A stretch of 64,000 bases of DNA from Agelas oroides (Eukaryota; Porifera; Demospongiae; Agelasida; Agelasidae). Made by a program: the position numbers and the translations under genes. This document shows, one piece after another, positions 1,101 to 25,637 of this stretch. The stretch is taken from positions 3,842,720-3,906,719 of the forward strand of contig OX422189.1 in NCBI GenBank assembly GCA_949130485.1, given 5' to 3'. The first letter of the stretch is position 1; every line of letters begins with the position of its first letter. Under the pieces are notes generated by a model. It had not been told where the DNA came from. It searched no databases and saw only the letters and a list, made by a program, of their open reading frames with translations.

Positions 1101-4100
1101 TCAGAGTTTACATATACCCGAACCACTCGGAGGGTTGCAAATTCGGCACATCCACTTCTCATCCTGTTCAGGAAGACGAGACAACCCCACACATGTGTAG
1201 TGCCACCACCTCCAACAACGTATAGCCTCGCATCCAACCCACAGGTGACTTTCTTTTTCTTTAAATTTCCCTCCACACTCCTGACAGTGTAGCTCATCTT
1301 CCGGGATTGTCACATGATCACGATTACGGCCACTTTTACCTACAAGAGGTATGAATGCAGGCTGGGATTAGTAATCAGTAGTACCTCTGCCGTTTTGTTG
1401 CAACTGATTAGAGGCAAACTGTGCGCATGTACCATTACACTCACACAGTAATATGCATGTTAACCATGGCCTATCAGTATGCTTAAGTCACAATGGCCGG
1501 GTATCGTTTTGCACTAACCTCGGGCAGAAGTCTCCTTATTCACTGTAGTGTCAGTCCTGTTAATCTGAATTAGATTCTTGAGTGCCTTACGGAAGGGATC
1601 TCCTTCACCACTGTCACCATGAACATCTGGCCTGGTGCTGGACAGTCTCTGTTTCTTTCCTGGGGACGATTCACTTTCCTGAGTGGATTTTCCTTTAGTT
1701 CGACTTCTCTTTGATCTGCCAGCTTCCTGTAGATTGTCACCACGGCTAACATATCTCAGATTCGATAACCTCCTCTTCCTTGGAGACTCTATGCTCCCTT
1801 CAATGGCTTCTTGGTCACCTGGCTCTGCTAGGCCGGATAGTCTCCTGTTCTCGGGTGAGCGCATGGTTCCTTGAGAGGCTTCGCAATCACCTGGTTCTAC
1901 TTGTCCGGCTTCTTGTTCACTGTCACTCGGCTTCATGTGGGATAGCGTCCGGTTCTTCTCGGGTGAGCGTGTGGCTTCTTGAGTGGCTTTGCGATCACCT
2001 GGTTCACAGTGAACATCCGAACCTCTGCTGGACAGTCTCTGTTTCTTTCCTGGGGACGATTCACTTTCCTGAGTGGATTTTCTTTTATTTCGATTTCTCT
2101 TTGATCTGCCAGCTTCCTGTAGATCGTCACCATCGCTAACATGTCTCCGATTCGATAATCTCCTCCTCTTTGGAGACTCTACGGGCCCTTGAGTGGCTTC
2201 TCGATCACCTGGTTCTGCCTGGCTGGCTTCTTGTTCTGCTTGGCCGGCTTCTTGTTCACTGTCACTCGGCTTCATGTGGGATAGCGTCCGGTTCTTCTCG
2301 GGTGAGCGTGTGGCTTCTTGAGTGGCTTCACGATCACCTGGTTCACGGTGAACATCCGAACCTCTGCTGGACAGTCTCTGTTTCTTTCCTGGGGACAATT
2401 CACTTTCCTGAGTGGATTTTCTTTTATTTCGACTTCTCTTTGATCTGCCAGCTTCCTGTAGATCGTCACCACGGCTAACATGTCTCCGATTCGATAATCT
2501 CCTCCTCTTTGGAGACTCTACGTCCCCTTGAATGGCTTCTCGATCACCTGGTTCTGCCTGGCCGGCTTCTTGTTCACCGTCACTCGGCTTCATGTGGGAT
2601 ACTCTCCTGTTGTTATCGGGTGAGCGCATGGCTCCTTGAGTGGCTTCTCGATCACCTGGTTCTGCCTGGTCGGCTTCTTGTTCACCGTCACTCGGCCTCA
2701 TGTGGGATAGTCTCCTGTTCTTATCGGGTGAGCGCATGGCTCCTTGAGTGGCTTCTCGATCACCTGGTTCTGCCTGGCCGGCTTCTTGTTCACCGTCACT
2801 CGGCCTCATGTGGGATAGTCTCCTGTTCTTATCGGGTGAGCGCATGGCTCCTTGAGTGGCTTCTCGATCACCTGGTTCTGCCTGGCCGGCTTCTTGTTCA
2901 CCGTCACTCGGCCTCATGTGGGATACTCTCCTGTTCTTCTTGGGTGAGCGCATGGCTCCTTGAGTGGCTTCTCGATCACCTGGTTCTGCCTGGCCGGCTT
3001 CTTGTTCACTGTCAGTCGGCCTCATATGGGATACTCTCCTGTTCTTCTCAGGTGAGCGCATGGCCCCTTGAGTGGCTTCTCGATCACCTGGTTCTGCCTG
3101 GCCGGCTTCTTGTTCACTGTCACTCGGCCTCATGTGGGATAGTGTCCGGTTCTTCTCGGGTGAGCGTGTAGCTCCTTGAGTGGCTTCACGATCACCTGGT
3201 TCACGGTGAACATCCAAACCTCTGCTGGACAGTCTCTGTTTCTTTCCTGGGGACGATTCACTTTCCTGAGTGGATTTTCCTTTAGTTCGACTTCTCTTTG
3301 ATCTGCCAGCTTCCTGTAGATCGTCACCACGGCTAACATATCTCAGATTCGATAACCTCCTCTTCCTTGGGGACTCTATGCTCCTTTGAATGGCTTCTCG
3401 ATCACCTGGTTCTGCTAGGCCGGATAGTCTCCTGTTCTTCTCGGGTGAGCACATGGCTCCTTGAGTGGCTTCGCGATCACCCGGTTCACGGTGAACATCC
3501 GAACCTCTGCTGGACAGTCTCTGTTTCTTTCCTGGGGACGATTCACTTTCCCGAGTGGATTTTCTTTTATTTCGACTTCTCTTTGATCTGCCAGCTTCCT
3601 GTAGATCGTCACCACAGCTAACATGTCTCCGATTCAATAACCTCCTCCTCTTTGGGGACTCTATGCTCCCTTGAATGGCTTCTCGATCACCTGGTTCTGC
3701 TAGGCCGGATAGTCTCCTGTTCTTCTTGGGTGAGCACATGGCTCCTTGAGTGGTTTCTCGATCAACTGGTTCTGCCTGGCCGGCTTCTTGTTCACTGTCA
3801 CTCGGCCTCATGTGGGATACTCTCCTGTTCTTCTTGGGTGAGCACATGGCTCCTTGAGTGGCTTCTCGATCAACTGGTTCTGCCTGGCCGGCTTCTTGTT
3901 CACTGTCACTCGGCCTCATGTGGGATACTCTCCTGTTCTTCTCGGGTGAGCACATGGCTCCTTGAGTGGCTTCTTGTTCACTGTCACTCGGCCTCATGTG
4001 GGATACTCTCCTGTTCTTCTCGGGTGAGCACATGGCTCCTAGAGTGGTTTCTCGATCGACTGGTTCTGCTTGGCCGGCTTCTTGTTCACTGTCACTCAGC

Positions 4101-7100
4101 CTCATGTGGGATAGTCTCCTGTTCTTCTCGGGTGAGCACATGGCTCCTGGAGTGGCTTCGCGATCACCTGGTTCACGGTGAACATCCGAACCTCTGCTGG
4201 ACAGTCTCTGTTTCTTTCCTGGGGACGATTCACTTTCCCGAGTGGATTTTCTTTTATTTCGACTTCTCTTTGATCTGTCAGCTTCCTGTAGATCGTCACC
4301 ACAGCTAACATGTCTCCGATTCAATAACCTCCTCCTCTTTGGAGACTCTATCACTTCTCCTGCGGCTATAAATAGAATGGATATAATCACTTTTTGGGAC
4401 TGGTACAATCCACATACATCCACACAATTTACACACCACACTAGACAACTGAAGGTTATAGGGCTAAGCAAATGCACTAGGTTCACAGTAACTCTGTGGA
4501 TAAGAATATGATGTTACCTTCATCAAGAATTTGGGCTGTTCGCTTCGTGAAGAACTCCTTCTGTACCATGATTGCACGGGCATAGATAGTGCTTGGAGAC
4601 TGTCTTCCTTCCACTCCGGCTGGCACATACTGAAGGGCAGTATTGGGTGCTAGAAATAGCTGTAAAACACCTTCTCTCAAATAGCCATGGCACAACTTCT
4701 TCAATGAGCTAGTAAATGTAGCTGGTAGTGGTATACCTCGACTCTGGAGATGCTTCCTCAACTCGCAAGCCAAAATGGCATACCAATGCACATCTTGTCC
4801 TCTTAGCTTACGGTTAGTGCGGAGGAATGTGAGAACCTATAATAAAGTAGCAGATACATGATAATCGGGTAGGAGACCCTGATAGAAGTGAGCAAAGACA
4901 TATTGCTAGGGTAAGGAACATGGAATAACCTTGGAGGTTTCCTCTCCAGATACTGCTTCACATAGCAGCTCTTCGACATCTTCCTTCTTCAGTTGCTGTT
5001 GAAACTGTACGGCTCTAAGTTGATAGATATTGACTGCAGTCATCACATCCTCTGTGAAGAACTGCCACATGAGTTCTTCCATATCAGGAGTCATCTTTCC
5101 AACAGCTTCGAGCAACTACAGTTTAGAGTAAATATTACAATAACTTCTAGTTAGTTAAACTTATTGGCAGAATTACGTGAGCACTATCATTACCTTAAAG
5201 GTAGCCAGCAGAAGCCAACTGTAAGACAACACAAGCCTGTGGTTTGTGAGAACTGTCTCTACCCTTTGAACTATCACTTTTAGGCATTCGCTGCTTTCCG
5301 GAGACAGTAGCACATTCCCTAGGGCAACCATGATGCCTGCCGCCCTTCCTGCTTTCTTCATTGCCTTTAGAACGGTATCATCGGCCTCCATACGTTCTGT
5401 AGCAGACATTTCGCTGACATCTGAAAAAGGAACAAGTACTGCTCGTGTGATGTACCTGCATTTGGAGAGCATTTCCTCAGTGTAACATGTTATAAGACTT
5501 CATGCAGATCACTAGCACATCAAGCTACACACATCAGAGCTAGTTGATATACATCTCAAGAAAAACATACCTTGCATCCATTTCACCTAAACTTTCAAGA
5601 CATGTCATGTTTACAGATGTAAGGAAAGTAGTTCTAGGAGTATCTTTTGATGCACGGGTAGCCCTTACACCTCTTTCAAAATGATATAGCAATTTTTCTG
5701 CGATTTCTGAAGGTTTCGAAGGGTCATCAATGATGAAGCCAAGTGTCGTTTTGCTAGCAGACTTCATCGCCTGTGTATCGGTGATTGACTTCACCTTGTT
5801 TTTGCCCTGCACTCTGAGCAGAGAAAGGGCTGCTTCTGTAGACATGGATTTGCCGAGGGATACATTTCCATGTGCTATTGCTGCCGGTACTTTGCCTCCA
5901 TGGGCATAGATAGCCTCATAGTGCAGTGCTAACAGCTCTGCTCCTAGCATCAGGAGGGCAGCAGGAAAATTCCTTCCAAAAACTTTTTCAAGCGCATCAA
6001 TGAGGCCACGCAGAGCTTTCCTTGACATTTTATGTGGAGACACTGAAGAAGCCTCACTATCAGAAGGGAGTCCATGTTGGTGAAGAATATGTTCTGGCAC
6101 ATAGTCAGCCAACCAGATGTAGGGACTTTCCTGAGGCGGAATTAGCTGTCCATCATCTCCAATATGGACTTTTCCGTTGAACACCCACACCTTTCTCACA
6201 TCGCTAATATTCTGCAGACCCACAACAGTTACGGCTTTTTTCACAAGGTGATCAGGGTCTTCAGAGTCAGCCTTTAATCTGTAGAATTCCTCGAGTTTAC
6301 GCATGAGGTATGCATCGATCTGTGAAACACCATGATCATGTAAACAAGTAATTGTGATGCTTATTTGGGTATGTTCTTCAATTCTACAGGGTTTCATTGA
6401 GGGAGGGGCATTATCCCCCCTTAAAAACATTTTGCCCCCCCCCCCCCCAACCACCACCACCTAAAACAATACATCACAAGTGGAAGAGAGCATGGAGACA
6501 GTGATGTAATAGCATGGCATATTTGTGGTTTATTGTCTATGTATGGGCCAGCCTATTGTTTTGGGAGGCCCGCTCTACCATTAAAACGATATTATATTCA
6601 GTTGGTTTAGAGATGAGTTCTTGCATATTTGTGGTTTATTGTCCATGTATGGGCCAGCCTATTGTTTTGGGAGGCCCGCTCTACCATTAAAACGATATTA
6701 TATTCAGTTGGTTTAGAGATGAGTTCTTGCATATTTGTGGTTTATTGTCTATGTATGGGCCAGCCTATTGTTTTGGGAGGCCCGCTCTACCATTAAAACG
6801 ATATTATATTCAGTTGGTTTAGAGATGAGTTCTTGTATACCCTTGTAAATGCTGCCTTTTTAAGAATTCCCAATCCTGTGAGCTTAATCTGACAGCCCAT
6901 TACAGCCCATTTAGTTACAATGGCTGCTGTGTTGACTATTACAAGTTTTACATGTATAGTGCTATTGAAGTGAATGTTGTCAGCAGTCAGGCTAATCTTC
7001 TATCACCAATCACAATTAAATTAAAATTTTAACATTAATGAGTTACCTCCAATGAATTATAAACCAAAATGAAATTATTTAATTTGGACAAATATTTATT

Positions 7101-8741
7101 GACACAAAAACTGTCCATGGAGTTTCAATGACACAAAAAACTTTGTAATTGTTATAAATTTGAAGGCTTTTAAAATGATCTTAGACTAGCTATACTTGTC
7201 CTATAGTTTTATGTACAACACAGCATAGATGGTAGAAGGTCCTTCTACTCTACTATCTCTGAACACAGCATATTGAAATGATGGTTGTTTCTACTGAACT
7301 TGCCTGAGAGGCTGAGGCGTGAGAAGAAATTGCTGTGTTCTTCACAGATTCCCATAGGGAGTTGTTGACCCATGACTTTCTTCCTCCCTTTGACCACGTG
7401 TTGGGGTAATAACCCTCACTGTATATAAGCCAATGAAACAAGTTTGCCATAATTTGGGCCCAGCACCAGCATGCATTTGAAACCAGCCGTCTACAATCAC
7501 TGGACTGGACTGGTGGACTGGACTGGTGGACTGACACTAAAAATAATTTTTACGCTTTTTAACAAGACCTACTCGCCTGTAGAGTTATGTGGAAACCCTG
7601 CAGCCTTCTCTCTGCACACAGTCATGGAACAAATAAGAAGTAGGCCTACAGTAATAGTGAAGGGTTTCGTAGCCAGCAATGTAATCTTGCATTTGTTATA
7701 GTAGAGACAGCCTGATTTAAGTTCCTACGACTACGGATGAGGTTTGGTATCTGGTAAACTGTTATCACACCATAATAGCATACTATGCACCATAATGCTA
7801 AAGTGTATATTAGTAAGCATTCCAGTCAAGTACAATACATTTCTTTCTTCTTACAAGCCTTGTCCAAACTGCCACTCTCAGTTTTAAAAAGTTTCCTGGG
7901 ATATAAAGTGAGTTACACGCAGCCTCAAACAGCTCCAGCGCTAAAACCATTCAAAGATTGTGGTCGTGCACATGCGCACCATGCCAAAATTTGTACTTAA
8001 ACTCAGCTGAAGCTTATTTTTATCGGTACTTTGACCCATTTTTGCAAATTCTAGACAAATTTTTATGGTTGCAACTAGGTATATTTTGACTGAAACCGTC
8101 GTAAATAAGACATTTCGAACCTTGATGTAAAATAAAAAACAACGGGTAGGCACAGTATAAGCTGGTAAAAATGACAAAAATGAAAAATGAGTGTCTGCTA
8201 GTACAGTAACTAGGCTAGTTATTCGCTAAAGGAAGTTTGAGTTTGCAAATTCGGCATCGCCTTTTTTGTGATCTTTGCAGCAGTTGCCATGTCTTGTATT
8301 CCAGTTCCAGGACCTTGATTTTTGAGTAGCTCAATAAAAGTGAGTAGAACCAGTAGTAATTAGTATACGGATTGGTATACGTGTAAGATTACGTACCGTC
8401 GAGATTATTGAACCGGAAATGTCCCCCTATTTCTGGCCATTGTCCAATCCACTAGTCCAGTCCAGTGATTGTAGATGGCCGTTTGAAACCTTGGGAAATA
8501 TGCTTACTAGTTAGTCGGTATGCATAACTACTTACCCAAGATCCGTCCCATCAAACAGGGTAACAGTACACGTATACCCAGATAAGGGGCCACCGTCTTT
8601 CACTTCGCTGCTGATGTCGATCTTGAAATTGCTTAGAGCTTTGAAAGAGCCTTCTTTGAAAATTCCAAACCGATTGCCTTGTTCAACGACATCTATGAAG
8701 TATTCGACTTCTGAGTCCAAGTCTTCCGACTCTCCTTCCAT
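1101..8741 (-). CDS. P-loop NTPase / Ser-Pro repeat / PHD-finger protein (8 exons)
   Basis: Eight exons joined by splice signals and consistent phase: 8741-8536, 7418-7304, 6319-5571, 5455-5194, 5115-4930, 4836-4518, 4359-1519 and 1339-1101. They total 4917 nt, or 1638 residues plus stop. The start at 8741 sits in a good context (gccatcATGG). Residues 258-265 (GNVSLGKS) form a Walker A loop. Residues about 299-306 (TLGFIIDD) look like Walker B. Exon 7 is a disordered, basic, Ser-Pro-rich tandem repeat with KRRR clusters suggesting a nuclear protein. The last exon is a PHD finger: Cys-x2-Cys, Cys-x4-Cys, WHYTC, then WMCRIC. Exon 2 ends in a GC donor (gcaagt). The role is unknown. I infer an accessory ATPase of the divergent KDZ transposon, with the PHD finger possibly reading histone H3. 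The ATPase family is unassigned. The exon chain is well supported by phase; the function is not. Confidence 0.72.
1519..4359 (-). repeat. Coding tandem repeat (exon 7 of the PHD/P-loop gene)
   Basis: This 2.84-kb exon encodes two interleaved repeat modules. The short module is 36 residues (108 bp), seen about 12 times around SHMRPSDSEQEAGQ and GDREATQG. The long module, about 80 residues and seen six times, contains ESPKRRRLSNRRHVS, GDDLQEAGRSKRS and SSPGKKQRLS. Unit lengths are multiples of three, so expansion keeps the frame. Neighbouring units are nearly identical (for example 2620-2945), which indicates recent unequal exchange. The SPEK, SPGKK and SPKRRR motifs resemble proline-directed kinase sites and DNA-minor-groove basic tails. 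The antisense open frames across this exon are shadows. Confidence 0.85.
6517..6905. repeat. 106-bp direct tandem repeat, three units plus tail
   Basis: Units start at 6517, 6623 and 6729, exactly 106 bp apart, and are nearly identical (gcatatttgtggtttattg at the start, gtttagagatgagttctt at the end). The sequence then runs on into a tail (cttgtaaatgctgcc to acagcccattac). It lies in the intron between exons 2 and 3 of the PHD/P-loop gene. A single diverged copy with the same tail is at 9917-10095, in an intron of the divergent transposase gene. It has no coding potential. Confidence 0.9.
7476..8490. mobile_element. hAT-like non-autonomous element (about 1 kb)
   Basis: Inverted termini pair 7485-7530 (gccgtctacaatcactgg, then ggactggactggtgga) with 8440-8481 read in reverse (ggccatctacaatcactgg, then the same GGACT repeats). 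The sequence tttgaaac(c) flanks both ends (7476-7484 and 8482-8490), an 8-9 bp target duplication that fits the hAT pattern nTnnnnAn. There is no transposase frame inside. The element sits between exons 1 and 2 of the PHD/P-loop gene, so it is an intronic insertion. A relative with the same GGACTGGACTA subterminal repeats is at 52657-53710. Confidence 0.75.
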
Positions 8742-8900
8742 GATGGCTAGAGCTAGCCTTATCGGCACATGGCCACAGTAGCATATGCTGCGCATGCGCA
8801 ATCTTTGGGTCCCGACTGAAAATAATTTTGTAGCGCCGTGGCCACAAACCATGCCGTCGATAGTAACCCGCAAGGAGCACGAGGCCGCGTGGTCCCAGTA
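8742..8900. promoter_or_regulatory. Shared bidirectional promoter with NRF-1-type palindrome
   Basis: Only 159 bp separate the minus-strand ATG (8741) from the plus-strand ATG (8901). The gap contains TGCGCATGCGCA at 8789-8800, a perfect match to the palindromic NRF-1 consensus YGCGCAYGCGCR. That motif is common in TATA-less bidirectional animal promoters. I see no convincing TATA box. The layout implies co-expression of the ATPase/PHD protein and the transposase. The motif is seen directly; its use is inferred. Confidence 0.55.
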
Positions 8901-8901
8901 A
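8851..8901 (+). CDS. Upstream ORF, 16 codons, stop overlaps transposase ATG (TAATG)
   Basis: An ATG at 8851 opens a 16-codon frame whose TAA stop (8899-8901) shares its last base with the transposase ATG at 8901, giving TAATG. This arrangement is compatible with termination-reinitiation. It would throttle transposase output if the transcript starts upstream of 8851. The peptide has no recognisable features. Whether it is transcribed is unknown. Confidence 0.35.
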   Translation: MPSIVTRKEHEAAWSQ

Positions 8902-9805
8902 TGGCTTCCAAAGGGAAAGGCAAACGAATGCGTCCACGTTACGACCCTGAACTAGCTCAGGCTATGGCTAAAAGGCGGAAGAAACATGTCGGTTTGAAAG
9001 ATGAGCTGGAGGAAGTTGTTTCCAAGACCACTGATATTGCAGTCTCCTTGGTATCCTCTGATGATATTCTGCAGTGTACGTTGAGTGACAAAGCTCTTGA
9101 GGTGCTGTTGATTGCTACAGTTGGGTTGGAAGGACTGCTCAATTTACGACATGCCATGTCGATGGTTCCCCAGAACTTTCCTGATAGGTCCACTCGGATA
9201 GTTTCATTGGTGACTGAACAGGTTCAAGTCTCGCCCGATAGAATCAAGAGGTGCATTGAATTGATCGAGAAGCTACATGTAATTGAAGGCCACTACCAGC
9301 GTTCCTTGTCACCACCTGTCTCCTGCTGCATCAATGAAAAGTGCCACATGCAGGGGAAATTCGGTTCCCTTGTAAAGCACCATGATCCTACAACAGTGAC
9401 CATGTACACACTAGCTGGCCCTGAGACAGCACTGAAACAAGCCCTGAAGTGCAAAGGATGCTCCTTCATTTACAACTACTCTATGTATGGGAAGAAGCTG
9501 ACAGAGGGTGAACGCTACTACAGCACAGAACGAGACCTCCTAGAAGTTTCCGACACATCCTACTGCGAGAGGGAGCTCTTTGAATTTTTCTGCAGTTTGA
9601 GGTATGCCCTCGCTGATGTCTTTCTGATACATGTGTTATAGTAAACGAATCTTCTACAGCTTGCACTGCTGGGTGTCTTTTTCAGGCTTCACTGAAGCGT
9701 ACTATGACTACTGCAGACACTTTAAAAAGCAGAGAAGTTTTGATGACTGGTGGACTAAGCGTGAAGGTACACAAGCATACCCAAAATTTGATTAATGTAT
9801 TCACT

Positions 9806-9850
9806 CCCCCCCCCCCCCCCCCCCTCCCACACACACACACACACACACAC
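9806..9850 (+). repeat. Poly-C / CA microsatellite
   Basis: A run of about 20 C residues is followed by (CA)n in the second intron of the KDZ gene. A similar C-run followed by accacc lies at about 6434-6462 in an intron of the divergent gene. Confidence 0.9.
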
Positions 9851-9916
9851 GCACACCCTTGCCATTGCATGAAAACACATATCCAGATTGTAGTCACTAT
9901 GGACCCCTAGCTCATG

Positions 9917-10095
9917 GCATATTTGTGGTTTGTTGTCTATGTATGGGGCCAGCCTATTGTTTTGGGGGGCCCACTCTACCAATACAACAATGTTATGTTC
10001 AGTTGCTTTAGAGTTGAGTTCTTGCATACTCTTGTAAATACTGCCTATTTTTACTATTTCCCATTCCTGTGAACTTAATGTGACAAGCCCATTAC
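9917..10095. repeat. Single copy of the 106-bp intron repeat plus tail
   Basis: It starts gcatatttgtggtttgttg and ends near gacaagcccattac, matching one unit of the 6517-6834 array together with its downstream tail, at moderate divergence. It lies in the second intron of the KDZ transposase. Confidence 0.8.
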
Positions 10096-11701
10096 GTTGC
10101 AAGATAGCTATTCCAACTACTTAACCATTATCACATTTTGCTCACATGTGTGTTGTAACCTAGGACACAAGCCACAACTGACAAGGAAGATAGTGTCTGA
10201 CATGTTTTACACTGGGGAACTGGAGAAGGAGATGCGCGAACAGCCACAGCGGCTGTTGGAATGGACTTTCGAACGAAACGACGACAGAGATAAGTACCTC
10301 CAGAAGATCGTTGAGGAGCAGAGAAAACAGTTATATCCTCACACACAGGCTTCATCATGTTCCACACGAGGTACGTTATAGATGTATCGCATAGACAACA
10401 CCCGCACCTAGCCTATAACAGCTAGAGGCTCCATGAAAGGTAGTTGTGGTGTAGACATTCCTGTAAATGTTTATTTCTCTACAAGTGCTTTGCGTACACA
10501 TTAGTTGTATTACAGTGTTAATGTATAATGACTTAATATAATGTCTGCTCTAGTGTTAGATAATGCTGTAGATGATGCTAGCTACACTATATACATTGCA
10601 GTGAATGGTTACAATTGTCAATGAGAATGTCCCCTGAAAAATTTTTATGCATGACTTTAATGGTTTCACTGCTAAATGATATGTGCTAATGTTCTTAGTA
10701 CTGTGCTGTCACTCTGTACATATTCCTTGCATACTGTGCACTTGTTTTTTCACCAAATTATTCAGGTTGCGGACATTGCTGGTCCATGGATGGGAATTGG
10801 AAGTTATGTTTTCCTCATTGTATGTTCCCTGTCTCCTCGAGTGTGCCAAATCTCCCAAATGTCCGGTTCCCCAATGTATGTCCCGAGCCACTAAAGCCCA
10901 AGAGTGCCTTCTGCATACAACACTATTCAAAGGCCCAAACACTTGGTTATCCAACCGACGTGAAAGGATTTTTGTCGTACTGTGGTGCAGCAAAGACAGC
11001 AGGTATTTCACTTCTATATTGTTTTTAAGATTATGGGTTATATCCTGCCAAGAGGGATTCAAAAATCTCTCGTCCATAATGTTCAGGAAAACTAGATGAT
11101 TCAGACGGCTCCCAGGAAGAGACAGAAGTGGAGGAAGGAGAAGACATGATATTTGATGCCGCCGTAAAACAGATTGCAGCTACATCGAGTGTTACATCTG
11201 ATGCTATGTTAGTTTCTCAAGGTGTGTTTCTCGTCTACCACATGCATGCTTCCTTCAGTTTGTTTCTACATAATGTTGTGCTCAATTTTTTGCAGGTACT
11301 GCAGACTTTGTGCAGCAGTTTCCATCAGTGGTTGATAGCTGTGAGCCTGAGCCATCTAACCAAGCCCCCACTTGCAGAAAGGATTTAGGAGAAAAGCGGA
11401 AGTTACGGCTATGGAGTAGAGGACACCTATTCATTGTGCGACCTTGTGGACATGTAGACTTATGGAGGCCAATATATCGGTACAACTACATGTGTGATTT
11501 CTTTGGCAATATGTTAAGTAAAGTAGTTACTGTAGAAACTCTATCTTATGGCCTCAGAGTTACTTGCGGTCCGGCTAAATTTTATGGGGGGAGTAGGCAG
11601 GCCTACTTCAGAAGAATGTTCTGCTGTGCTGTTTTGCAGGTCTGAATCTCCTTCACAAGTCTTCCTCATAGTCATATCTTGGCTATTTGAAATACTGCAA
11701 A

Positions 11702-14700
11702 TTAATCTCCTTACTGAGCGTATACATGGCTGCTGGATGCATTATACCATACTCCTTTCTTGTGGGGGGTGAGCTGGGCCTAATGGAGGGCTAGAGCTTC
11801 TCAATAGCAGAGGCAGTTTATTAGCATTAGGCACATGCAACCAGTAATTAGCTTGCCCCCGACTATAATGACACATTGTCCGAAGCTTGGGGGTAAATCA
11901 CTGGGGGCGGAGCCTCCAGGTATTGGCCCAGCTCAGATCACGTCTAATTAAGACGGAGAAATGTAGTCTGAAGAGGGGGTTGGGTACATGGGTGGGAAAA
12001 TTTTTGAGTAGATACAGGCAAAAAAGGTAGCTGCAATGGCTAACAATGAGTGCAAAGGCGGTTGCCAAGGACAAGCGTGGACTGAGCATGCGCAAAGCCC
12101 GCCCAGTATTACGTAATTGCATGTGCTCAAGACCCGTTTGTCGATTAACCTTGTTTAACTAGCATTAAACATCATTTAATCTCCTTACTGAGCGTATACA
12201 TGGCTGCTGGATGCATTATACCATACTCCTTTCTTGTGGGGGGTGAGCTGGGCCTAATGGAGGGCTAGAGCTTCTCAATAGCAGAGGCAGTTTATTAGCA
12301 TTAGGCACATGCAACCAGTAATTAGCTTGCCCCCGACTATAATGACACATTGTCCGAAGCTTGGGGGTAAATCACTGGGGGCGGAGCCTCCAGGTATTGG
12401 CCCATGGACGAAGTCTTACCCCCAAGAGAGGAGAGGTAGGTAGGACTTTGATTAGTGTACATAATGTGACTTTATAACAATACTTGATCTCAGTGTCATG
12501 ACCAGTTAAATGGTTGCTGCCCATGATTAAGCAATGGCAGAAAATCAAGAAGAGTAACCTACCTAAGCAGTGGGATTAGTTTATCAATGAAACAGCAAAT
12601 GGAGCCTGGGCAGTGGCAATTTTTATGCTGCCATAAATGAAAGGGGGCACACTGATCATTCGCTCTCTTCAGCTTCTTAAAGTGCACTAGCTGGTACTAT
12701 GCTTAAGGGGGAAGAAACCGCTTAGCCAACTTAATATTGAAATTGCCTCCTGCAATATCCTTGCTTGTCTCGGCAACAGGCATCCTCTAATAAATGATGT
12801 GGAACAAGCACTCAACCATTAAACTCAGTGGCCAACCCACTACAGTAGATAGAGAGAGAGAGACTACATATGGAGCTGCAATCATAGACATAACCTTGTA
12901 GCTTGTCGTGGCTGAAGCAGCAAACAGAAAGACGTAGTGGTTATGGTGTGGCAAGCATTACACATAACTTAATGGTTATATAGCTCATCTTGACAGGCGT
13001 CCTTTGGGAATACTGTGGAGCAGCATTCGAGTATCTTAACTCAGTGGCCGACACACTACAACAGATGGGAAATGTTATGGCATATCATGGCTATAAGCAA
13101 CAAGCATTGGCTATAATCTTGTGGTTATGGAGCAGCAGCATTAGATATAACCTACTGGTTATGGTGTGGCAAGGATTAGACATAAACAAGTGGTTACAGA
13201 GTAGCACACATTCGGCATAGCCAAGTGGTTATGTTGCGGCAAGCATTAGGCATCACCTATGGAGCAGCAAGCGTCAGACATAACCTTGTTGTAGGGTATG
13301 TAGCAGCAATTATCTTTGTGGATATCGTACAGGGACAATCTGCTGGTTATGGTATGCCAAGCATGGTGCAGTGGCTGTATGTGTAATCCTGCGGTTACAC
13401 ATGGTTCAGGGGCAACCAATATCTTTGTTGCAGTTGGAGCCATTTGGTGCAATAAATGCGACAACTTATGTGGTCCTGAATTGTAAGCAGTGAGAAACTT
13501 GTTTGCGACAAGACCATTGGCGGAGCCTGCCAAATGGACTGCTGATAGGATCATATCAAAATTTGCCACAATGAAATACAAGCATCACATCAAGCACGTC
13601 ACTGTATAGGATCCTTACTGGTGCCGGTATTTGTAATATGAACAACAGCCCCATTATCGCATCGGCATACAACAGACTGGTTAGCCCATTGGGCACCCCA
13701 AATACCCGCAGCTATAACAATTGGTAACAGCTCTTTAACAGTTATGTGGCTGTCAATGATAGCTGCAGGCCATTGAAGCTGAAACCAAGAATTAGCATAG
13801 AAGGCACCGCAGCCCCATATGAGCCGGAGGCATCAGACGTAAGGATACATCTGGGTTACTATGGCGTGCTTTTTGCATCATGGATAGGCCAATCCATTGT
13901 GTGATGAAATGGGTCCAGCATAAAATATTGGAGCAGGCTTCGATGTTCAGCCTGATGAATCCCCTGGCTGGGCGATGGAGAGCAGACTTTAGCAAATCAA
14001 TGAGGCGGCGAATAAAATTACAGCCTGGGCGAACAACAATGCTGGCATCATGCAGTTGTCCCACCAGTGACTCTAGATCCCTTCATTTAGATGGCTCTGC
14101 TTCTGAAGTGTGGATTGAAGGCACTCAAGCTTCAACTGGCAGGGATTGATTTCTTGTCATGCATGCCTGAGCAGGTGGAGAACCCGAAGTAAAGATACAG
14201 CAGTAAATAAGCATTGTTAAGGATTTGACCACTGATATGTATGCTTCTGAATGTGAATGATTGCAAGATCGCAGGAATGGTGAGATGCTGTTAGTAATGG
14301 TAGGCAAACCAAATTAATGTAGTAGCAGAAAGCATTTTTATTTATCATTATTATTTTTTTTTCACATTACACATGCCTGCATGAGCTTGTGGAGAGCCAC
14401 TAAACAACTAAACAAGCATCGTTGTACGATTACAGATATGCCTGTCAGAGAATCGCAAATTATAACAATAATGAAGGTCGAGTAATGAAAGGCAAACTAG
14501 AAGGCAACAGCAGAAGAGCAATTATTTTATTTATTTCCACTCACCTATGTGCCATGCAAGTTGAGAACAGAAAGTACAGACACAGCAGCTAAACAAGCAT
14601 TGTTGTACTTATACCGATACATGCTTGCCATGAATGTGAACAGAGAAAGGATCATATAGCAGTGATGAGGGACTGCATGTGCATATCGATAGAATGTAAT

Positions 14701-16529
14701 AGCAGTGAGCGTCACATGCCTGGGCATGTGGAGAACAGGAACTATCACAACTTAATACACATTGCCAGCAAAAGGATGCTTTGATCACTGACATGCCTGC
14801 CATTGAATGCAAGCGTTTGCATGATCGTAGTGATGATGAGATAGGCAAACTACAATGTAATAACAGAGAGCATTCTTTTAAGAGGGGCTTTGGTCACTGA
14901 TATGCCTGCAGGTGAATGTGAACATTGCAAATCCTAAGAGTTATGAGTAATGAAAGGCAAATTAGACTGCTATGGCAGGAAGCATTTTTGGTTTGTTTGT
15001 TTGTTTGCTTGTTTTCTCTTTTCTTTTTTTTATTTTAGGAAACACAAATACAGCAACTAAACAAGCATTGTTGTACAATGAGATGAGGCTTTCATGTCAA
15101 TGATTGCTGATATTTTTGCCAGTGAGTGTGAACAATGAGTAAATCATAGCAATGAAGAGGGGTTATGGGTAATGATGGGCAAGCTAGTAATAGCGGAGAG
15201 CATGTTTCATGTCACACATGCTTGAGCATGTGGAGAACAGGAGATATAACTTAGCGGAAAATAAGCAATGTTAGAATAGATCATAAGTAAATGAGGAGCC
15301 ATAAGTAGTAATAGGCAGACAATGTAATAGCAGAGAGCATTTTCTTGTCACACATGCCTGAGCATGTGGAGAACGTGAGATATAGATACATGCAGTAAGG
15401 GAATAAGCATTGTTGTGCAATAAGAGGAGGCTTTAGCCTCAGTGATCATTGATAGGCTTACCAGTGAATGTTAACATTTGCAAAGCAACATCACAGTGAT
15501 GACGAGACACTATGATTAATGATAGACATATGTAGAAGCAGTGAGCTTTTTTTTTTTTTTTTTTCTAGTCACACGTCAGGAAAATGTGAGAATGGAGAAT
15601 GTGAAGGTTATGATGAAGCAGACACAACTTGATAGCTGCGATGAAGCAGACAATGTTCTGATTATGGAGCAGCAAGCCTTGGACAATACTTGATCAGAAG
15701 TGGGATAACCCAGCAGTTATGGTACATTGGCTGGCATGTGCATTGCTGCAGCCCTTGTAGGTACAAGTAACAGTTATGGAGTGGGAATCAGTGTAACCTG
15801 GTGGTTGCAGATCAGCAGGAAGTGGGCATGACCTGACAGTTGTGATGCAGGCATAGCCTGGCCATTGGGGATGGGCGACTATATATTTGGCAGCCAGCAG
15901 TCAGGAGCCACAGAAAGTTACCAGATTAAGGGTATTTAAAGTGTGATGTGTGACGGCACCATGCTTAGGTAGATGGAGGATGAAGATAAGGTCTGAGTGC
16001 TGGGACCAGAGTATGATACCCTGGTGAGACTGTGCATAGAGGGGTGGGAATAGTGCCACATGTTGGGTGAGAGATCGCTGGACAAAAAGGCAGAGGCATT
16101 AATTAATCCAATGGAATAGTATTTGGCATGCACTAATGGCTGAGTTGGGGCGGTTACATACGGAGTGCCAGGCGTTATGGGTAGCCTAGTAAGATAGTGT
16201 AATGTGATATGAATATGTGATAAGGTACGCAAGCCTGCTTAGCTTTGCGGCAGCAGTGCAATGAGCACCTAGAATAAACCGGTGATAATGTTAAGGTGGA
16301 CAATGTGTGCAATCTGGAACAGTGGGCATTGGGCATAGCTTGGTGATTATAGTTCATTTGAGTAGATACAGGCAAAAAAGGTAGCTGCAATGGCTAACAA
16401 TGAGTGCAAAGGCGGTTGCCAAGGACAAGCGTGGACTGAGCATGCGCAAAGCCCGCCCAGTATTACGTAATTGCATGTGCTCAAGACCCGTTTGTCGATT
16501 AACCTTGTTTAACTAGCATTAAACATCAT
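11702..16529. mobile_element. Head-to-tail dimer of a non-coding element inserted in the KDZ exon
   Basis: Unit 1 (11702-12175, 474 bp) and unit 2 (12176-16529, 4354 bp) abut with no gap. Both begin ttaatctccttactgagc and end agcattaaacatcat. They share about 230 bp at the left and about 170 bp at the right. Unit 1 keeps only about 67 bp between these ends, while unit 2 has about 3.95 kb of degenerate non-coding repeats. Removing 11702-16529 leaves caaa joined to gtgtacc and restores the conserved transposase frame, so there is no target-site duplication. Head-to-tail copies without duplication suggest rolling-circle (Helitron-like) transposition, but canonical TC and CTRR ends are not present. 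The LTR model does not fit, because unit 1 contains both ends. Confidence 0.75.
12890..15660. repeat. Degenerate tandem repeats inside the long unit
   Basis: The first part (about 12890-13470) repeats variants of agcaagcattagacataacc and gtggttatgg. The second part (about 14150-15600) repeats a block of roughly 150-200 bp built from atgcctgagcatgtggagaac, cagcagtaaataagcattgttg and gtaatagcagagagcattttt (near 14160, 14370, 14710, 15210 and 15350). No open frame of note occurs. This looks like internally amplified filler of a non-autonomous element. Confidence 0.65.
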
Positions 16530-17615
16530 GTGTACCTCAGTCAGAGTGGTCATCCATCATATTATCCTATGATAATATGTGCCACCTTGATGGCCTTCGT
16601 GCTGCAACAGCTCCTCTGCCTCTTCCACAGCCATACAACACCATGTGGAAGGCAATTACCAAGGTACAATGCAGACATTCTACCTTAATTGGTCATGCAG
16701 GGTTTTTAGTGGAGGGAATAGTTAACTGAATGGAAGTGAGGCTGAACATCAGTCTCAATTTATACCAGCCAGGCGTGTGCTTTGCACGCACCCAGCCGGT
16801 CCTAAGTTTGCTTTACATGTACGTTTTCTGAGTTTGTTTGTTTGTGCATCCATGCACACTTATCACGTGCATAATATAAACATCATACGTTACTATGCAA
16901 CTTTTATGCAGCTTTGTAGGCCAAGCTACAGCAGGTAAGTGCAGTTTTGTGTTGCTAAGGCAGCAAAAGTGGTAAGTAGTCGTGATAACATACCATACAG
17001 CTGCTAATAGGAAGTGGAGAAACTGCTGAGCCAGCACTTCTGCTATGTTGCTTATCTGTTTCTGCATGGTGTCTGTTACAGTTTACCTCAGACTGCAATT
17101 GGCTTGGCCTGACCTGTCTCTGAGATGAGCTGTGGGTGTTTCACTTGAAAGGTTCCTGGCTGTTTTTTTAGACTTAAAATGTCAGACTTGTTCTGTCTTC
17201 CACCCCTGATCTAAATAAAACGGACTTGGAGAAAACAAAGCAAATGGAGTTCTACATGCAGTGGATAATCTAAGAACGCGACTATGGTCTTGACCCATTA
17301 CTTACTTCTAACGCTTCAATTCTATAGGTCATTGATGATCTCCATATCAAGAATCACCGCGATGAACAGTGTAGAAAAAAATATCATCCAAAGAAAGTAC
17401 TGGAGGCAAATCCAAACTATAACTTTATGATTGCAGAACAAACTTTTGCTTGGCTGTCACGTTACAAGAAGATTCTTTGTAGTATGGACAAATTGCACCA
17501 CCTCTTTTTTCTTCATAGAGTTATTACCAGAAGAAATAAGTACACACACCTTTGCATCAGTACTGGGAGAAAAGTGCTGCTACCAAAGTCAAAAGACAAA
17601 ACAAAGCGATACTGA

Positions 17616-18751: not shown

Positions 18752-18845
18752 CCAATATATATAGCCCTTGTAGCCATGCGTTACTGAAAACTTACAATGG
18801 ACACAACACTTGCACGTATCACATTCATACAACTACTTGAAATAC

Positions 18846-20270
18846 TTCAACAATGCTCAACACATTGCAACACTTGCAACACTGCAACACTGCAACACAA
18901 TAAATTGAACACTTGCAACACAACACTGTGCAACACTAGCCTCGTACCCAGGCTCCTCCCCATGCCGAAAAGCGTGGGGAGGAGGAGCCTGGGTACGAGG
19001 CTACTGCAACACATGCAACACTCAACATTGCAACACATGCAACACTGCAACACATGCAACATTGCAACCGACTGCAACACATACAACACTGCAACAGTGT
19101 AACAGTGCAATACATGTAACATTGCAACACTTGCAACACTGCAACACTGCAATACATGCATACTGCAACACTGCAACACATGCAACACTGCAACACTCAA
19201 CATTGCAACACACACATGCAACACATGCAATACATACAGCATTGCAACACTGCAATACAATGTCATGCAAAACTGCAATACATATAACACAATGTCATGC
19301 AACACTGCACTACATACAACACAATGTCATGCAACACTGCAACACATGCAACACTGCAACAGTGTAACACATATAACACAATGTCATGCAACACTGCACT
19401 ACATACAACACAATGTCATGCAACACTGCAACACATGCAACACTGCACGCAACACAGTAACACAATGTCATGCATGCAACACTGCAACACTGCAACACTG
19501 CAACACTGCAACACATGCAACACTGCAACACAGTAACACAATGTCATGCATGCAACACTGCAACACTGCAACACTGCAACACATGCAACACTGCAACAGT
19601 GTAACACAGTATAACACAATGTCATGCATGCAACACTGCAACACATGCAACACATGCAACACTGCAACACATGCAACATTGCAACAGTGTAACACTGCAA
19701 CACTTGCAACATTGCAACAGTGTAACAGTGCAATACATGCAACACATGCAACACTTGCAACACTGCAACATTGCAACCGACTGCAACACATGCAACACTG
19801 CAACAGATGCAACACTGCAACACTAGCCTCGTACCCAGGCTCTGCAACACATGCAACACTGCAACATTGCAATACATGCACACAACATTGCAACACGTGC
19901 AACACATGCAACACAACACTGTATAACACAATGTCATGCAACACTGCAACACTGCAACACTGCAACACATGCAACACTGCAACAGTGTAACACAGTATAA
20001 CACAATGTCATGCATGCAACACTGCAACACATGCAACACATGCAACACATGCAACACATGCAACACATGCAACACTGCAACACATGCAGCATTGCAACAG
20101 TGTAACACTGCAACACTTGCAACATTGCAACAGTGTAACAGTGCAATACATGCAACACATTGCAACACTTGCAACACTGCAACATTGCAACCGACTGCAA
20201 CACATGCAACACTGCAACAGATGCAACACTGCAACACTAGCCTCGTACCCAGGCTCTGCAACACATGCAT
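18846..20270. repeat. TGCAACAC satellite array
   Basis: About 1.4 kb consists almost wholly of 8-12 bp words (tgcaacac, tgcaacacatgcaacac, tgtaacacaatgtcatg), with larger blocks repeated, for example 19470-19545 and 19990-20090. Long open frames on both strands exist only because the words lack stop codons, so they are not genes. Pieces of the TAGCCTCG hairpin family are embedded at 18937-19003, 19815-19842 and 20236-20257. Confidence 0.9.
18937..19003. mobile_element. TAGCCTCG-family hairpin MITE inside the satellite
   Basis: The arms tagcctcgtacccaggctcc and its inverse surround a short centre (ccatgccgaaaagcg). The flanks are gtgcaacac and ctgcaacac, compatible with a target duplication but uninformative inside a TGCAACAC array. 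Confidence 0.75.
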
Positions 20271-20922
20271 GCATAGATGTGGCAGTATTTGGGTTAGGTT
20301 AAGATGAATTTTAAAAATGCAACGTTGCTTTCGTTGCAAATCTGCTACAGGACTTCGTAGCCTCGTTCCCAGGCTCTCCCCTCGCCCCGACAAAAAATAA
20401 AAACGGTTTTCTCTAGCATAGGAACATGAACACATTGAACAGACTGCATTTTAGATTTCAACACACAGTGTCTACAATTTCACCAATGTTTGACCCTTGC
20501 TGCATAGTTAGATTGCAGTGTACAGCAACGTAGTGCACAAATGCACACCACAGCATTGCACAGCAGGATTACTAATTGTGCACCAAACACAAGAGTGTTG
20601 ACCAGTCAAGACTCATGGATAGAAATGGAAAATATAATTCAAGCTTTTTTCTGTGCTGCTGGAGGCTGCTCTGAAATGTCAGTCTGTTTCCCCCTAGCTA
20701 CACAGCTGCCAGAAATGCATCCCTTTTCGATATTCAATACTGACTAGTTTTAATACTACACTGATACCATGCTTACTTGTTCTCTTCTCCCTCGATGTGC
20801 TGTATACTCTCTGAATGCATGCTTGTAGGCAGAAATTCGGTTAAGTTAAATCTCGTAGGGAGGGGTTAAAATCTAAATTTGGGGTAAACCCGTAATTTTT
20901 TTCTCATGAGCAAGTCTGTACA

Positions 20923-21230
20923 TAGTCTCGTGACCAGCCGGATATACCTACGGAAAGTCCGTCTGGTAACGTTGGGCTCGATTCTGGGGCTTTTCTACTT
21001 ACGACGGAGTTATTTGAACGTGCCAATGAAATTGTAGCATGTCCAATTACTGGGGCGGCCCACTAGCGCTTGTGCGGATGCTAATTGGTGATAATTGAAG
21101 CCATGCAGAGGTGAGAACGTCCAGCGCCGGCCGCGTTCAAACCCTGCTGACGTGTGCAAAAGCCCAAGAAAGGCGCGCAATGTTACCAGACGGATTTTCC
21201 GTAGGTTATTTCCGGCTGGGCACGAGACTA
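20923..21230. mobile_element. TAGTCTCG-family MITE, 308 bp, 9-bp target duplication
   Basis: The ends tagtctcgtgaccagccgg and its inverse continue through agtccgtctggtaac for roughly 47-bp arms. The direct repeat gtctgtaca flanks it exactly (20914-20922 and 21231-21239). The same insertion is present in the duplicate (54649-54964), so it predates the duplication. Confidence 0.85.
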
Positions 21231-21392
21231 GTCTGTACATACGAGATTCTGAAAGTGCGGACGGAATATCGACTTGTAAATGTGTGAATAAAGACGATAC
21301 TCTACAGTACTCTAGTCTACTACGGAGCCCTACTTCTGAGTTTTAATCCGGAGTTTTACCTTCATCATTTTAGGCTACAAGTTTTGTTGAAT

Positions 21393-21800
21393 ATGGATAC
21401 CCAGACCAGTTCTAGAAGAGCTCTCAAACTAGCGCAGGAACAAGAAGTCGCCGAAGATCGGAGACGGCCCAGAAACGAGAGAAACAGAGCTCGACGTGCT
21501 GCAGAGACTGCAGAACAAAGGAGCGAGAAAGCGAAGGGAGAGAGGTCGTGCTAGGCACGCTGCTCGAACTGCTAGTGGAAGACAAGCTAACTTTACAGCG
21601 AAAGGTACCCGTGAACGCGAAAGAACGGCAGCTGAAACCCCTGAGAGAGAAACAGGATTACAGCGGACGAGCACCAAATTTATCAATGCGAAAGGTTGAC
21701 ATTTGAAAACCCCGAGGAGACAGAAACGAGGTCACAGCGGATGAGAGATAGACTGTACACACCCCAAAACCACCCATGTGATATACTATATACCTCCCGC
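21393..21800 (+). pseudogene. Arg-rich repeat protein remnant, frameshifted
   Basis: The ATG at 21393 opens MDTQTSSRRALKLAQEQE, then an Arg-rich stretch with the motif RRAAETAEQR. Shifting frame gives RRERGRARHAARTASG and ETPERETGLQRTST, then FENPEETETRSQRMRDR. Such RRxRxRRAxETxExR repeats occur near the N-terminus of Helitron and other transposon proteins of invertebrates, as family knowledge from memory. The frame is broken near 21540. Relative to the duplicate, 5 extra bases near 21678 break it again. Confidence 0.5.
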
Positions 21801-21952
21801 TCAGGCTCGCCACATAATGCTTTGCATCTACACTAGTTAGATATAACTGGGTATACGTATAGCCTCGTTCCCAGGCCCCGCCCAGCTTTCCGTTGCTTTC
21901 AGTACGGAAAAGTATGGAGCGTTATTAGTGCCAAAATAGACGCCCGCTTATT

Positions 21953-22588
21953 TGGGTGATCACAATTGGTATTTCAGCTATGATCAGGGAGCACCCAGAT
22001 ATTCCTGCCATCATAGACTACACAGATGAAGACGATGCATCAAAGACTGAGTGCAACAAGGATACCGGCACCAGGAAGAAACTGCAGAAATGGACGAGGG
22101 GTCATCTTTTTATTGTCCGTACATTGACACTTGGCAGCCCCTCTACCAGTAAGCACCTAATCATGCACACTTGTCAGATCAGCACATGCATTCTTCCATT
22201 TATGCCCATCTAAGCGCCTTGCATAATCTTTTGTATTTGTTTCTTTTTTCAGGTCAGAAGGACCGGCACAGGTTTTCCTGATTGTGCTGGTTTGGATGCT
22301 ATCTGCATTTGCAGCATTGTCCAGGGAGTCGAGGAGAAAGATCATCTTGTCGTCATGTACCACCTAAATAATTTAAAGGTGGCCAGAAGCCCACTTCCAC
22401 TTCCGAGGGAATTCAGCCATATGCGGCTGGATGTGAAGAAAATTATTGACACACTTCATATCCAGAACCACAAAGACAAGCAGTGCAGGGAACTGTATAG
22501 TCCAGAATTGGTGAAACTTGAAAACCCGAATACCAACACAATGTGTACATTCGCTTGGTTGTCTAGGTATAAAAGGATTCTCAACTGA
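21953..22588 (+). pseudogene. KDZ transposase relic (C-terminal part)
   Basis: Motifs match the KDZ gene at 8.9-17.6 kb: WTRGHLFIVR, a frameshifted IDTWQPLY, an intron (22149-22257), then SEGPAQVFLIVLVWM, LNNLKVARSPLPLP, IIDTLHIQNHKDKQC and FAWLSRYKRIL. The region equivalent to catalytic YDNMCH and to E of EQTF is altered or deleted, and several frameshifts are present. It is a dead copy of a different KDZ lineage, because it is far from identical to the first. Confidence 0.75.
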
Positions 22589-25312: not shown

Positions 25313-25348
25313 AATTACATGCTAAAATATGAAGCTGTGGATATTAAT

Positions 25349-25454
25349 CTAATTATGTGGTTAGACCCTCCTATTCAACATGTAAAGAAGTTTACCACAT
25401 AATTATATTCATGTGCACAGCATTTTTTGGGGGTTCACATTTAGCAAGGTCAAC
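25349..25454. mobile_element. Truncated foldback MITE (ACCACATAATTATATTCAT family)
   Basis: The inner arms aattatgtggtt and accacataatta flank about 35 bp. The right arm continues through gtgcacagc and ttcacat..agcaaggtcaac. The complete member is at 50669-50809. In the duplicate, a 183-bp element has landed in the right arm. Confidence 0.65.
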
Positions 25455-25600
25455 GCAAACGGCTGCACTACTAGAATGGCTTCATGTTAAGTACCTGCTA
25501 AGCATATTCACTGCTAATTGCCTACGTCATCCTATCCAGATGGCGGTATAGAAAGCGTATGGGAGTTGCACACTCTTATTGTGAATAAACACTTGATCAT

Positions 25601-25610: not shown

Positions 25611-25637
25611 TGTTCAGACCTACAAATGGACTGAGCA

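What the first reader, a model, noticed from the sequence alone, without database searches (positions are those of the whole stretch)
1101..17615. Divergent two-gene KDZ system: transposase plus P-loop ATPase/PHD partner
Seen: two multi-exon genes start 160 bp apart on opposite strands, and every exon phase agrees in both. The plus gene has the CxC5, CxC6 and D-D-E features of KDZ transposases. The minus gene joins a P-loop NTPase, a nuclear-type repeat region and a PHD finger. Known: some cut-and-paste systems use an ATPase partner for target choice (for example Tn7 TnsC, Mu MuB). Inference: this could be a two-component animal transposon in which the ATPase partner is tethered to chromatin marks by its PHD finger. 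I know of no description of such a partner for KDZ, but I could not search.
Basis: partly seen in the sequence, partly recalled or inferred. Interest (0 to 1): 0.9.

Follow-up and report, generated by a model that had tools for sequence, protein, structure and literature searches.

The report
Sponge transposon carrying its own ATPase
In a sponge-like animal genome, a poorly known kind of jumping gene travels with a second gene for an ATP-binding protein that, in some copies, also ends in a chromatin-reading domain, a pairing that could help it choose where to land.

Summary
The divergent pair is real, and it is a repeated unit of a transposon lineage. The minus gene is a clean 8-exon, 1640-aa model: N-domain, P-loop ATPase, helical part, repeats, PHD finger. 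The plus gene is a KDZ transposase (Pfam CxC5, E 2.4e-17), but its 4.8-kb "intron" is a retroelement with split direct repeats sitting inside the catalytic exon, so this copy is broken.

In the window's own 259-Mb genome, 21 of 59 ATPase loci lie within 15 kb of a KDZ locus (19 within 6 kb; 0.27 expected). Sixteen are KDZ-then-ATPase on one strand, five head to head, none in another order. One relative (contig C17) is a 17.3-kb element holding both genes, with an 8-bp target duplication and a matching empty site; a copy on C4, about 96-99% identical by block, has the same termini. Both lie in related 144-bp satellites.

So the ATPase partner is a transposon gene. Its PHD, seen in three of the families read, most resembles H3K4-methyl readers. 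I propose that the ATPase regulates or targets KDZ insertion; this is inferred. My searches found no such partner for KDZ in print, but the founding papers were not held. It is not universal: 12 of 26 two-ended KDZ loci show no partner.

The parts
8536..8741 (-). ATPase/PHD partner, exon 1 (start codon, N-domain VEYFIDVVEQGNRFGIFKE...)
   Evidence: same exon in paralogue L038 at C2:12.24 Mb
7304..7418 (-). partner exon 2 (EGYYPNTWSKGGRKSWV...SASQ), AG acceptor, GC donor
   Evidence: same exon in paralogue L038; GRKxWV motif also in P0025 and the C17 element
5571..6319 (-). partner exon 3: P-loop ATPase core (GNVSLGKS, IIDDP, TSVN)
   Evidence: 20-row alignment, P-loop and DDP columns nearly invariant
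5194..5455 (-). partner exon 4: putative arginine-finger strand (ITRAVLVPF) and helical part
   Evidence: 51% identical to H. panicea P0002
4930..5115 (-). partner exon 5
4518..4836 (-). partner exon 6
1519..4365 (-). partner exon 7: basic, serine-rich tandem-repeat region (about 949 aa)
1101..1339 (-). partner exon 8: PHD finger and stop
   Evidence: 66% identical in P0002
8901..9601 (+). KDZ transposase exon 1; CxC5 lies at residues 133-249 of the spliced protein, so it runs on into the next exon
9660..9766 (+). KDZ exon 2 (WVSFSGFTEAYYDYC), end of CxC5
10164..10370 (+). KDZ exon 3
10766..11002 (+). KDZ exon 4 (CGHCWSMDGNWKLCFPHC cysteine cluster)
   Evidence: conserved in the C17 element
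11087..11221 (+). KDZ exon 5
11296..11479 (+). KDZ exon 6 (CGHVDLWRPIYR)
11640..11701 (+). KDZ catalytic exon, left part, cut by the retroelement
11702..16529 (-). retroelement with split direct repeats (Ngaro/PAT-like layout, recalled) inserted in the KDZ catalytic exon; not an intron
   Evidence: uninterrupted exon in relatives
16532..16663 (+). KDZ catalytic exon, right part (YDNMCHLD), out of register with the left part
17328..17615 (+). KDZ last exon (AEQTFAWLSRYKKI...FFLHR), stop
   Evidence: 88 matches in own genome
18150..18150 (.). KDZ-side end of the shared block with the C1 copy
   Evidence: no target duplication found
7476..8488 (.). region between 48-bp inverted repeats (87.5%), likely a small non-autonomous element in partner intron 1

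Best explanation
The pair is a decayed copy of a two-gene DNA transposon of the KDZ group. One gene is the transposase; the other is a P-loop, probably AAA+-type, ATPase that in this branch also carries a C-terminal PHD finger. Shown: the genes recur together, in fixed geometry, at many loci, and in one relative both lie inside one inserted element with an 8-bp duplication. Inferred: the transposase cuts and joins the ends; the ATPase assembles on DNA or on the transposase and licenses or targets strand transfer, as TnsC and MuB do; in branches with the PHD, it docks this assembly on methylated histone H3K4, as RAG2 does for RAG1. The copy in the window cannot make an intact transposase, because a retroelement sits in its catalytic exon.
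For: Own-genome search: 59 ATPase loci from three queries and 85 KDZ loci from two exons. 19 of 59 lie within 6 kb (0.27 expected, binomial 3e-30) and 21 of 59 within 15 kb; 16 KDZ-to-ATPase on one strand, 5 head to head, 0 convergent, 0 ATPase-first. C17 element 4283981-4301308: 17,328 bp, 8-bp duplication CCAACAAC, both genes inside; the joined flanks match intact satellite units 78 of 90 without a gap. C4 copy: 95.6-99.5% identical by block, same two termini. Architecture conserved in the C17 element, whose ATPase core is 44% identical to P0016 where the window's is 64%, and in Halichondria panicea P0002 (46%, with PHD). PF18758 (KDZ) gives 34 matches in the own genome and none in 14 control genomes; 4 of the 34 overlap matches to the window's last exon, and one of those four (C5:0.50 Mb) has an ATPase 5.2 kb downstream. 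The window's PHD matches ING4, ING2, BPTF and KDM7 chains best (E from 1.6e-4); that of the C17 element matches EBS, TAF3, PHF2 and PHF8 (E from 4.3e-5).
Confidence: 0.62

Rival explanations
1. Passenger reading: the ATPase/PHD gene is part of the transposon but does not act in transposition. It counters host silencing or aids replication or expression of the element, as TET/JBP genes carried by fungal KDZ transposons are thought to.
For: Fungal KDZ elements carry TET/JBP dioxygenases with a proposed anti-silencing role (PMC12730594, abstract, passages and two sections read). A PHD reader fits chromatin effects. About half of two-ended KDZ loci lack a detected partner. Two of 20 family members match DUF927 weakly (best E 0.087).
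Against: The ATPase is found with several KDZ families and, more distantly, next to a gene with a CxC4 cluster, so it seems older and steadier than the PHD. Consistent geometry suggests co-regulation.
Confidence: 0.25
2. Host-gene capture or chance: the ATPase gene is a host multigene family that KDZ elements happened to land beside or pick up once.
For: 38 of 59 ATPase loci have no KDZ detected within 15 kb. H. panicea has the gene as an annotated locus, and no KDZ relative was found with the full KDZ query (a capped candidate list).
Against: Adjacency about 70 times above expectation with fixed order and strand; both genes inside one element with target duplication; partner copies decay like transposon copies (P0001 and the C1 copy, which share an internal deletion and may be one locus).
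Confidence: 0.07
3. A known KDZ or Zisupton arrangement that is described in subscription papers or in Repbase entries, so that the partner is not new.
For: Iyer et al. 2014 is not in the held library; Boehne et al. 2012 was seen only as a reference and not looked up. Repbase is not searchable here. 65 held papers contain the word Zisupton; 20 were listed and four of them opened.
Against: In three of the opened papers the word ATPase does not occur in the main text; in the fourth both occurrences concern Polintons.
Confidence: 0.12

Closest known systems
KDZ (Kyakuja-Dileera-Zisupton) DNA transposons
   Same: CxC5 cysteine cluster and KDZ catalytic exons; 8-bp target duplication in the C17 element, the value reported for a Dileera element (PMC12730594, section 3.1.1); no clear terminal inverted repeats, as reported for Kyakuja
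   Different: Carries a second gene for a P-loop ATPase with or without a PHD finger; the reported extra gene in fungal KDZ elements is a TET/JBP dioxygenase
RAG-like (ProtoRAG/RAGL) transposons
   Same: Animal two-gene DDE transposon whose second protein ends in a PHD finger; RAG2L PHD of sea urchin binds H3K4-methylated tails (PMC7204232, passages read)
   Different: RAG2L has a kelch propeller, not an ATPase; RAG1L and RAG2L are tail to tail, whereas here the genes are in tandem or head to head; different transposase family
Tn7 TnsC and Mu MuB (target-selecting ATPases)
   Different: No sequence relation shown; eukaryotic host; PHD and repeat tail; function untested. TnsC and MuB roles are recalled
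Polintons
   Same: Large eukaryotic DNA elements that carry an ATPase (PMC5718144, passages read)
   Different: Their ATPase is described as genome-packaging and they use a retroviral-type integrase and protein-primed polymerase; none of these was seen here
DUF927 (PF06048) P-loop proteins
   Same: Weak matches by 2 of 20 family members (best E 0.087)
   Different: Below significance
Ngaro/PAT-type tyrosine-recombinase retroelements
   Same: Split direct repeat layout of 11702-16529 (the layout of the named families is recalled)
   Different: No Pfam match in the one internal ORF tested (96 aa); recombinase not shown

Membership tests
KDZ transposase (window plus gene) | KDZ-associated cysteine cluster | tested here: met
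   PF18718 CxC5 E 2.4e-17, above cut-off
KDZ transposase (window plus gene) | PF18758 KDZ catalytic domain | tested here: inconclusive
   No match in the window's separate exon pieces and no window row among the 34 own-genome matches; over cut-off at four own-genome loci that overlap matches to the window's last exon
KDZ transposase (window plus gene) | Acidic catalytic residues | tested here: inconclusive
   YDNMC[HN]LD and EQTF[AV]W conserved in three families; their catalytic role is recalled, not tested
KDZ transposon (whole element) | Target duplication of 7-8 bp | tested here: met
   8 bp CCAACAAC at the C17 relative; not found for the window element, its C1 copy, the C4 copy or the C5/C23 family
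KDZ transposon (whole element) | Uninterrupted transposase gene in the window copy | tested here: not met
   Retroelement in the catalytic exon
RAG2-like partner | Kelch propeller plus PHD | tested here: not met
   PHD present; no kelch match at E<=1 in the partner pieces scanned, which leave out exon 2 and the repeat exon
RAG2-like partner | Tail-to-tail arrangement with the transposase | tested here: not met
   0 of 21 pairs convergent
TnsC/MuB-type AAA+ regulator | Walker A, Walker B, sensor Asn, downstream Arg | tested here: met
   P-loop and IDDP columns nearly invariant in the 20-row alignment; S-x-N and the downstream Arg are kept in most rows that reach them; the names of the motifs are recalled
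TnsC/MuB-type AAA+ regulator | Common ancestry with these ATPases | tested here: inconclusive
TnsC/MuB-type AAA+ regulator | ATP-dependent control of target choice | not testable with these tools
   needs biochemistry
H3K4-methyl-reading PHD | Sequence kinship with known readers and binding | tested here: inconclusive
   Closest PDB chains of the window PHD are ING4, ING2, BPTF, KDM7 (E from 1.6e-4), of the C17 PHD EBS, TAF3, PHF2, PHF8; Pfam puts the window PHD nearest NSD-type PHDs; binding untested

The most novel reading that the evidence does not exclude
An animal cut-and-paste transposon that works like Tn7 or Mu: a dedicated AAA+-type ATPase controls where and when its DDE transposase inserts, and in one branch a fused PHD finger couples that decision to a histone mark. 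The same ATPase family accompanies at least two KDZ branches (CxC5 and, more distantly, a CxC4-bearing gene). Insertions into chromosome-internal 144-bp satellites on two contigs may be the signature of such targeting.
Probability: 0.35. Interest if true: 0.92.

Novelty: new variant of a known kind. Interest (0 to 1): 0.78.

Why it matters
Eukaryotic cut-and-paste DDE transposons are usually thought to make do with a transposase and DNA-binding helpers; target-selecting ATPases are a bacterial and phage theme, and Polinton ATPases are for packaging (first two points recalled, the last from passages). A KDZ lineage that carries its own ATPase, sometimes fused to a PHD finger, would be a second animal case, after RAG2, of a transposon-encoded chromatin reader, and the first I know of joined to an ATPase. 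It makes the question 'can a eukaryotic transposon choose its target by an ATP switch and a histone mark' directly testable with a located 17-kb element.

Tried and rejected
Rejected: that 11702-16529 is an intron (split repeats, and one exon in relatives). Rejected: that the 1640-aa gene is a lone host gene (recurs with KDZ). My early idea that a piece of the 7.5-8.5 kb region was partner exon 2 was dropped: the exon is 7418-7304, outside that region.

Led nowhere: Rfam at gathering cut-offs, 0 matches. PDB sequence search with the 505-aa ATPase part, E >= 0.43, and with the C19 ATPase, E 1.9. Full-length KDZ protein search, no hit among 7995 scored candidates. Viral contigs and prokaryote genomes: 14, 26 and 116 pattern matches, none confirmed. 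Phage records, none. First structure model pLDDT 41.8, second 51.3; only the second was compared with PDB. Target duplication at the window element and its C1 copy and at the C5/C23 family: none found. A TIR check of the C17 ends gave only an imperfect 21-nt match, about 35-40 nt in from each end. The C19 ATPase could not be searched genome-wide (tool busy). Its neighbour gene has a CxC4 match below cut-off (E 1.9e-4), and a direct alignment to the KDZ core scored 48 against a shuffle mean of 32.3, SD 5.4 (4 of 300 shuffles as high), so its KDZ nature is a lead only.

Paper searches: (listings). Read: PMC12730594 (abstract, passages, sections 3.1.1 and 3.2.1); PMC9297572, PMC7204232, PMC12062965, PMC5718144 (passages only). 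Iyer et al. 2014 is not held. 'Not in print' therefore means not in these listings and passages.

Rows left out before counting: 82 of 88 rows were used (left out: five short C22 rows and C17:5254117, all inside or next to used rows) and 39 of 40 rows (left out: C2:12243622); rows that fell on ATPase loci already listed were not typed again. C10:4603464 shares its nearest KDZ with C10:4613143, so 21 pairs involve 20 KDZ loci; the C7 KDZ locus was merged with a short fragment at C7:3865161. One search used 57 of the 88 last-exon rows and 38 of the 40 exon-1 rows.

Full report
What is there. The minus-strand gene splices cleanly from 8741 to 1101: eight exons, AG acceptors, GT donors except one GC, 1640 aa and one stop. 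Its order is: a short N-domain, a GRK-x-WV stretch, a P-loop ATPase core, a helical part, about 950 residues of basic serine-rich repeats, and a PHD finger. The plus-strand gene starts at 8901 and carries the KDZ-associated CxC5 cluster (E 2.4e-17), the CGHCW...GNWK cluster, and the catalytic stretch ending in AEQTFAWLSRYKKI...FFLHR.

A correction. Between the two halves of the catalytic exon lie 4,828 bp bounded by split direct repeats that are 100% identical (229 and 173 bp). That layout is typical of Ngaro/PAT retroelements (recalled). Three relatives show the region as one exon: C17, C22 and C5; C17 and C5 are aligned with the window. So the window's transposase is broken by a recent insertion, and the halves no longer share a register.

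Who else has it. A first protein search found a decayed 93% copy (P0001) and a 46% relative in Halichondria panicea (P0002) that also ends in basic sequence and a PHD. P0001 shares its internal deletion with the own-genome copy on C1 and may be the same locus in another assembly. A joint query then returned 27 proteins, of both kinds, at 41-96% identity, four of them standing for 20-32 member sequences. Copy number of this sort fits a mobile element.

The decisive test. The window lies in a 259-Mb, 141-contig assembly. Three ATPase queries gave 59 loci; two KDZ exons gave 85 loci. 19 of 59 ATPase loci lie within 6 kb of KDZ against 0.27 expected, and 21 of 59 within 15 kb. Geometry is fixed: 16 have the ATPase downstream of KDZ on the same strand and 5 are head to head; none is convergent or reversed. 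The head-to-head form is that of the window, C1, C2, C4:4.01 Mb and one weak case on C10. The binomial test treats loci as independent, which related copies are not; the fixed order argues against mere clustering of transposons. No other transposon family was run as a control.

An element with both genes. Two copies of one family, on C17 and C4, match in blocks at 95.6-99.5% identity; the C4 copy holds extra insertions. Homology stops at the same two points. On C17 the element is 17,328 bp (4283981-4301308), begins CACTTGAGG, ends CCTTATCTA, and is flanked by CCAACAAC on both sides (a 9-bp reading ACCAACAAC is also possible). Taking one duplicate away restores a satellite unit: the joined flanks match intact units 78 of 90 without gaps. 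Inside, KDZ comes first and the ATPase gene second, with the same order of parts and a PHD at its end (Pfam PHD 34.9 bits against a cut-off of 24). The C4 copy has the same ends but no visible duplication; it lies in an array of a related satellite, where later exchange could have removed it (inference).

Satellite. Both insertions, and one side of the C23 copy of another family, lie in or at a roughly 144-bp satellite. In the part of the list shown that satellite forms arrays on C17, C18 and C13, internal to the contigs. Survival bias could explain this as well as targeting; the satellite is not in the window.

How constant is the partner. Of 26 KDZ loci with both end exons on one strand, 14 have a detected partner within 15 kb. 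Six of the 12 without have near-equal match scores and look like one family; four of these six lie about 50-65 kb from a contig start or end (C10, C18, C20, C5), and the lengths of C12 and C13 were not seen. PF18758 gives 34 matches, 30 of them not overlapping the window's relatives; I did not check those for a partner. The partner families at C3 and C5 have the P-loop and helical part but no PHD among the ORFs listed. A still more distant ATPase on C19 lies head to head with a gene bearing a CxC4 cluster (E 1.9e-4, below cut-off). So the ATPase seems the older component and the PHD an addition in the branch of the window, C17 and Halichondria.

The PHD. The window's PHD finds ING4, ING2, BPTF, KDM7, ING3 and ING1 chains first (E from 1.6e-4); that of the C17 element finds EBS, TAF3, PHF2 and PHF8 (E from 4.3e-5); the H. 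panicea one, through the family profile, KDM7, TAF3 and ING3. Most of these read methylated H3K4 (recalled). Against this, Pfam puts the window's PHD nearest an NSD-type PHD, just below cut-off. Binding is untested.

Mechanism. Most likely KDZ performs cutting and joining and the ATPase gates or guides it, with the PHD, where present, adding chromatin preference. Steps shown: shared mobility and conserved architecture. Steps inferred: ATP-dependent control, target choice, histone reading. The main rival is an anti-silencing or helper role, as proposed for TET/JBP in fungal KDZ elements (PMC12730594, abstract, passages and two sections read). RAG-like transposons are the nearest animal parallel, with a PHD-ended partner but a kelch core and tail-to-tail genes (PMC7204232, passages).

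Novelty. No held paper in the listings or 131 was seen to describe an ATPase partner for KDZ. The one paper holding KDZ, transposase and ATPase together uses ATPase only for Polintons (passages). Most listed papers were not opened, and two founding papers and Repbase could not be or were not read.

Noticed in passing
window 20346-28714 and 54072-62635: An 8.3-kb segment is duplicated at about 99% identity. It holds ORFs that look like asparagine synthetase (recalled from MCGIWAIFG and SGGLDSS motifs, no family search run); further copies near 34.0-38.7 kb, 42.0 kb and 49.2 kb make a tandem array.
   Followed up: no
window 22442-22585 and 56171-56314: Two short 63% matches to the KDZ last exon lie inside the duplicated segment, so another KDZ relic predates the duplication.
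   Followed up: no
window 23632-25314 and 57452-59047, minus: Long ORFs that look like a non-LTR reverse transcriptase (recalled from motifs).
   Followed up: no
window 46377-47672, minus: A 431-aa ORF resembling a gamma-butyrobetaine or trimethyllysine dioxygenase (recalled).
   Followed up: no
window 30148-31703; 18830-20238: A 56-bp unit repeated 27.8 times at 94%, and a long degenerate TGCAACAC array.
   Followed up: no
window 6517-6839 and 9917-10095: The same roughly 106-bp repeat lies in introns of both genes, three times in tandem in the partner and once in KDZ.
   Followed up: no
G000 C17:4.27-4.40 Mb, C18, C13; L052, L056, L058, L067: A roughly 144-bp satellite with internal arrays on several contigs, possibly centromeric, which hosts two full KDZ-ATPase elements and borders a third.
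   Followed up: partly
G000 C10:50350, C18:50742, C20:61971, C5:11625479, C12:9424290, C13:9157015: Six KDZ loci with near-equal match scores; four lie about 50-65 kb from a contig start or end (C10, C18, C20, C5), which suggests subtelomeric duplication; no partner was detected.
   Followed up: partly
L064 and L068 (G000 C19:687000-701500): A distant 380-aa ATPase with five listed places at nearly the same score (C6, C19 twice, C7, C11) lies head to head with a multi-exon gene with a CxC4 cluster and an H-H-C...HHYFF stretch, possibly another KDZ lineage with the same kind of partner.
   Followed up: partly
L063:3031-3684 minus (G000 C5, downstream of a KDZ copy): A 218-aa ORF beside a KDZ copy without a detected partner; the best family match is weak (Transposase_20, E 0.18).
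   Followed up: no
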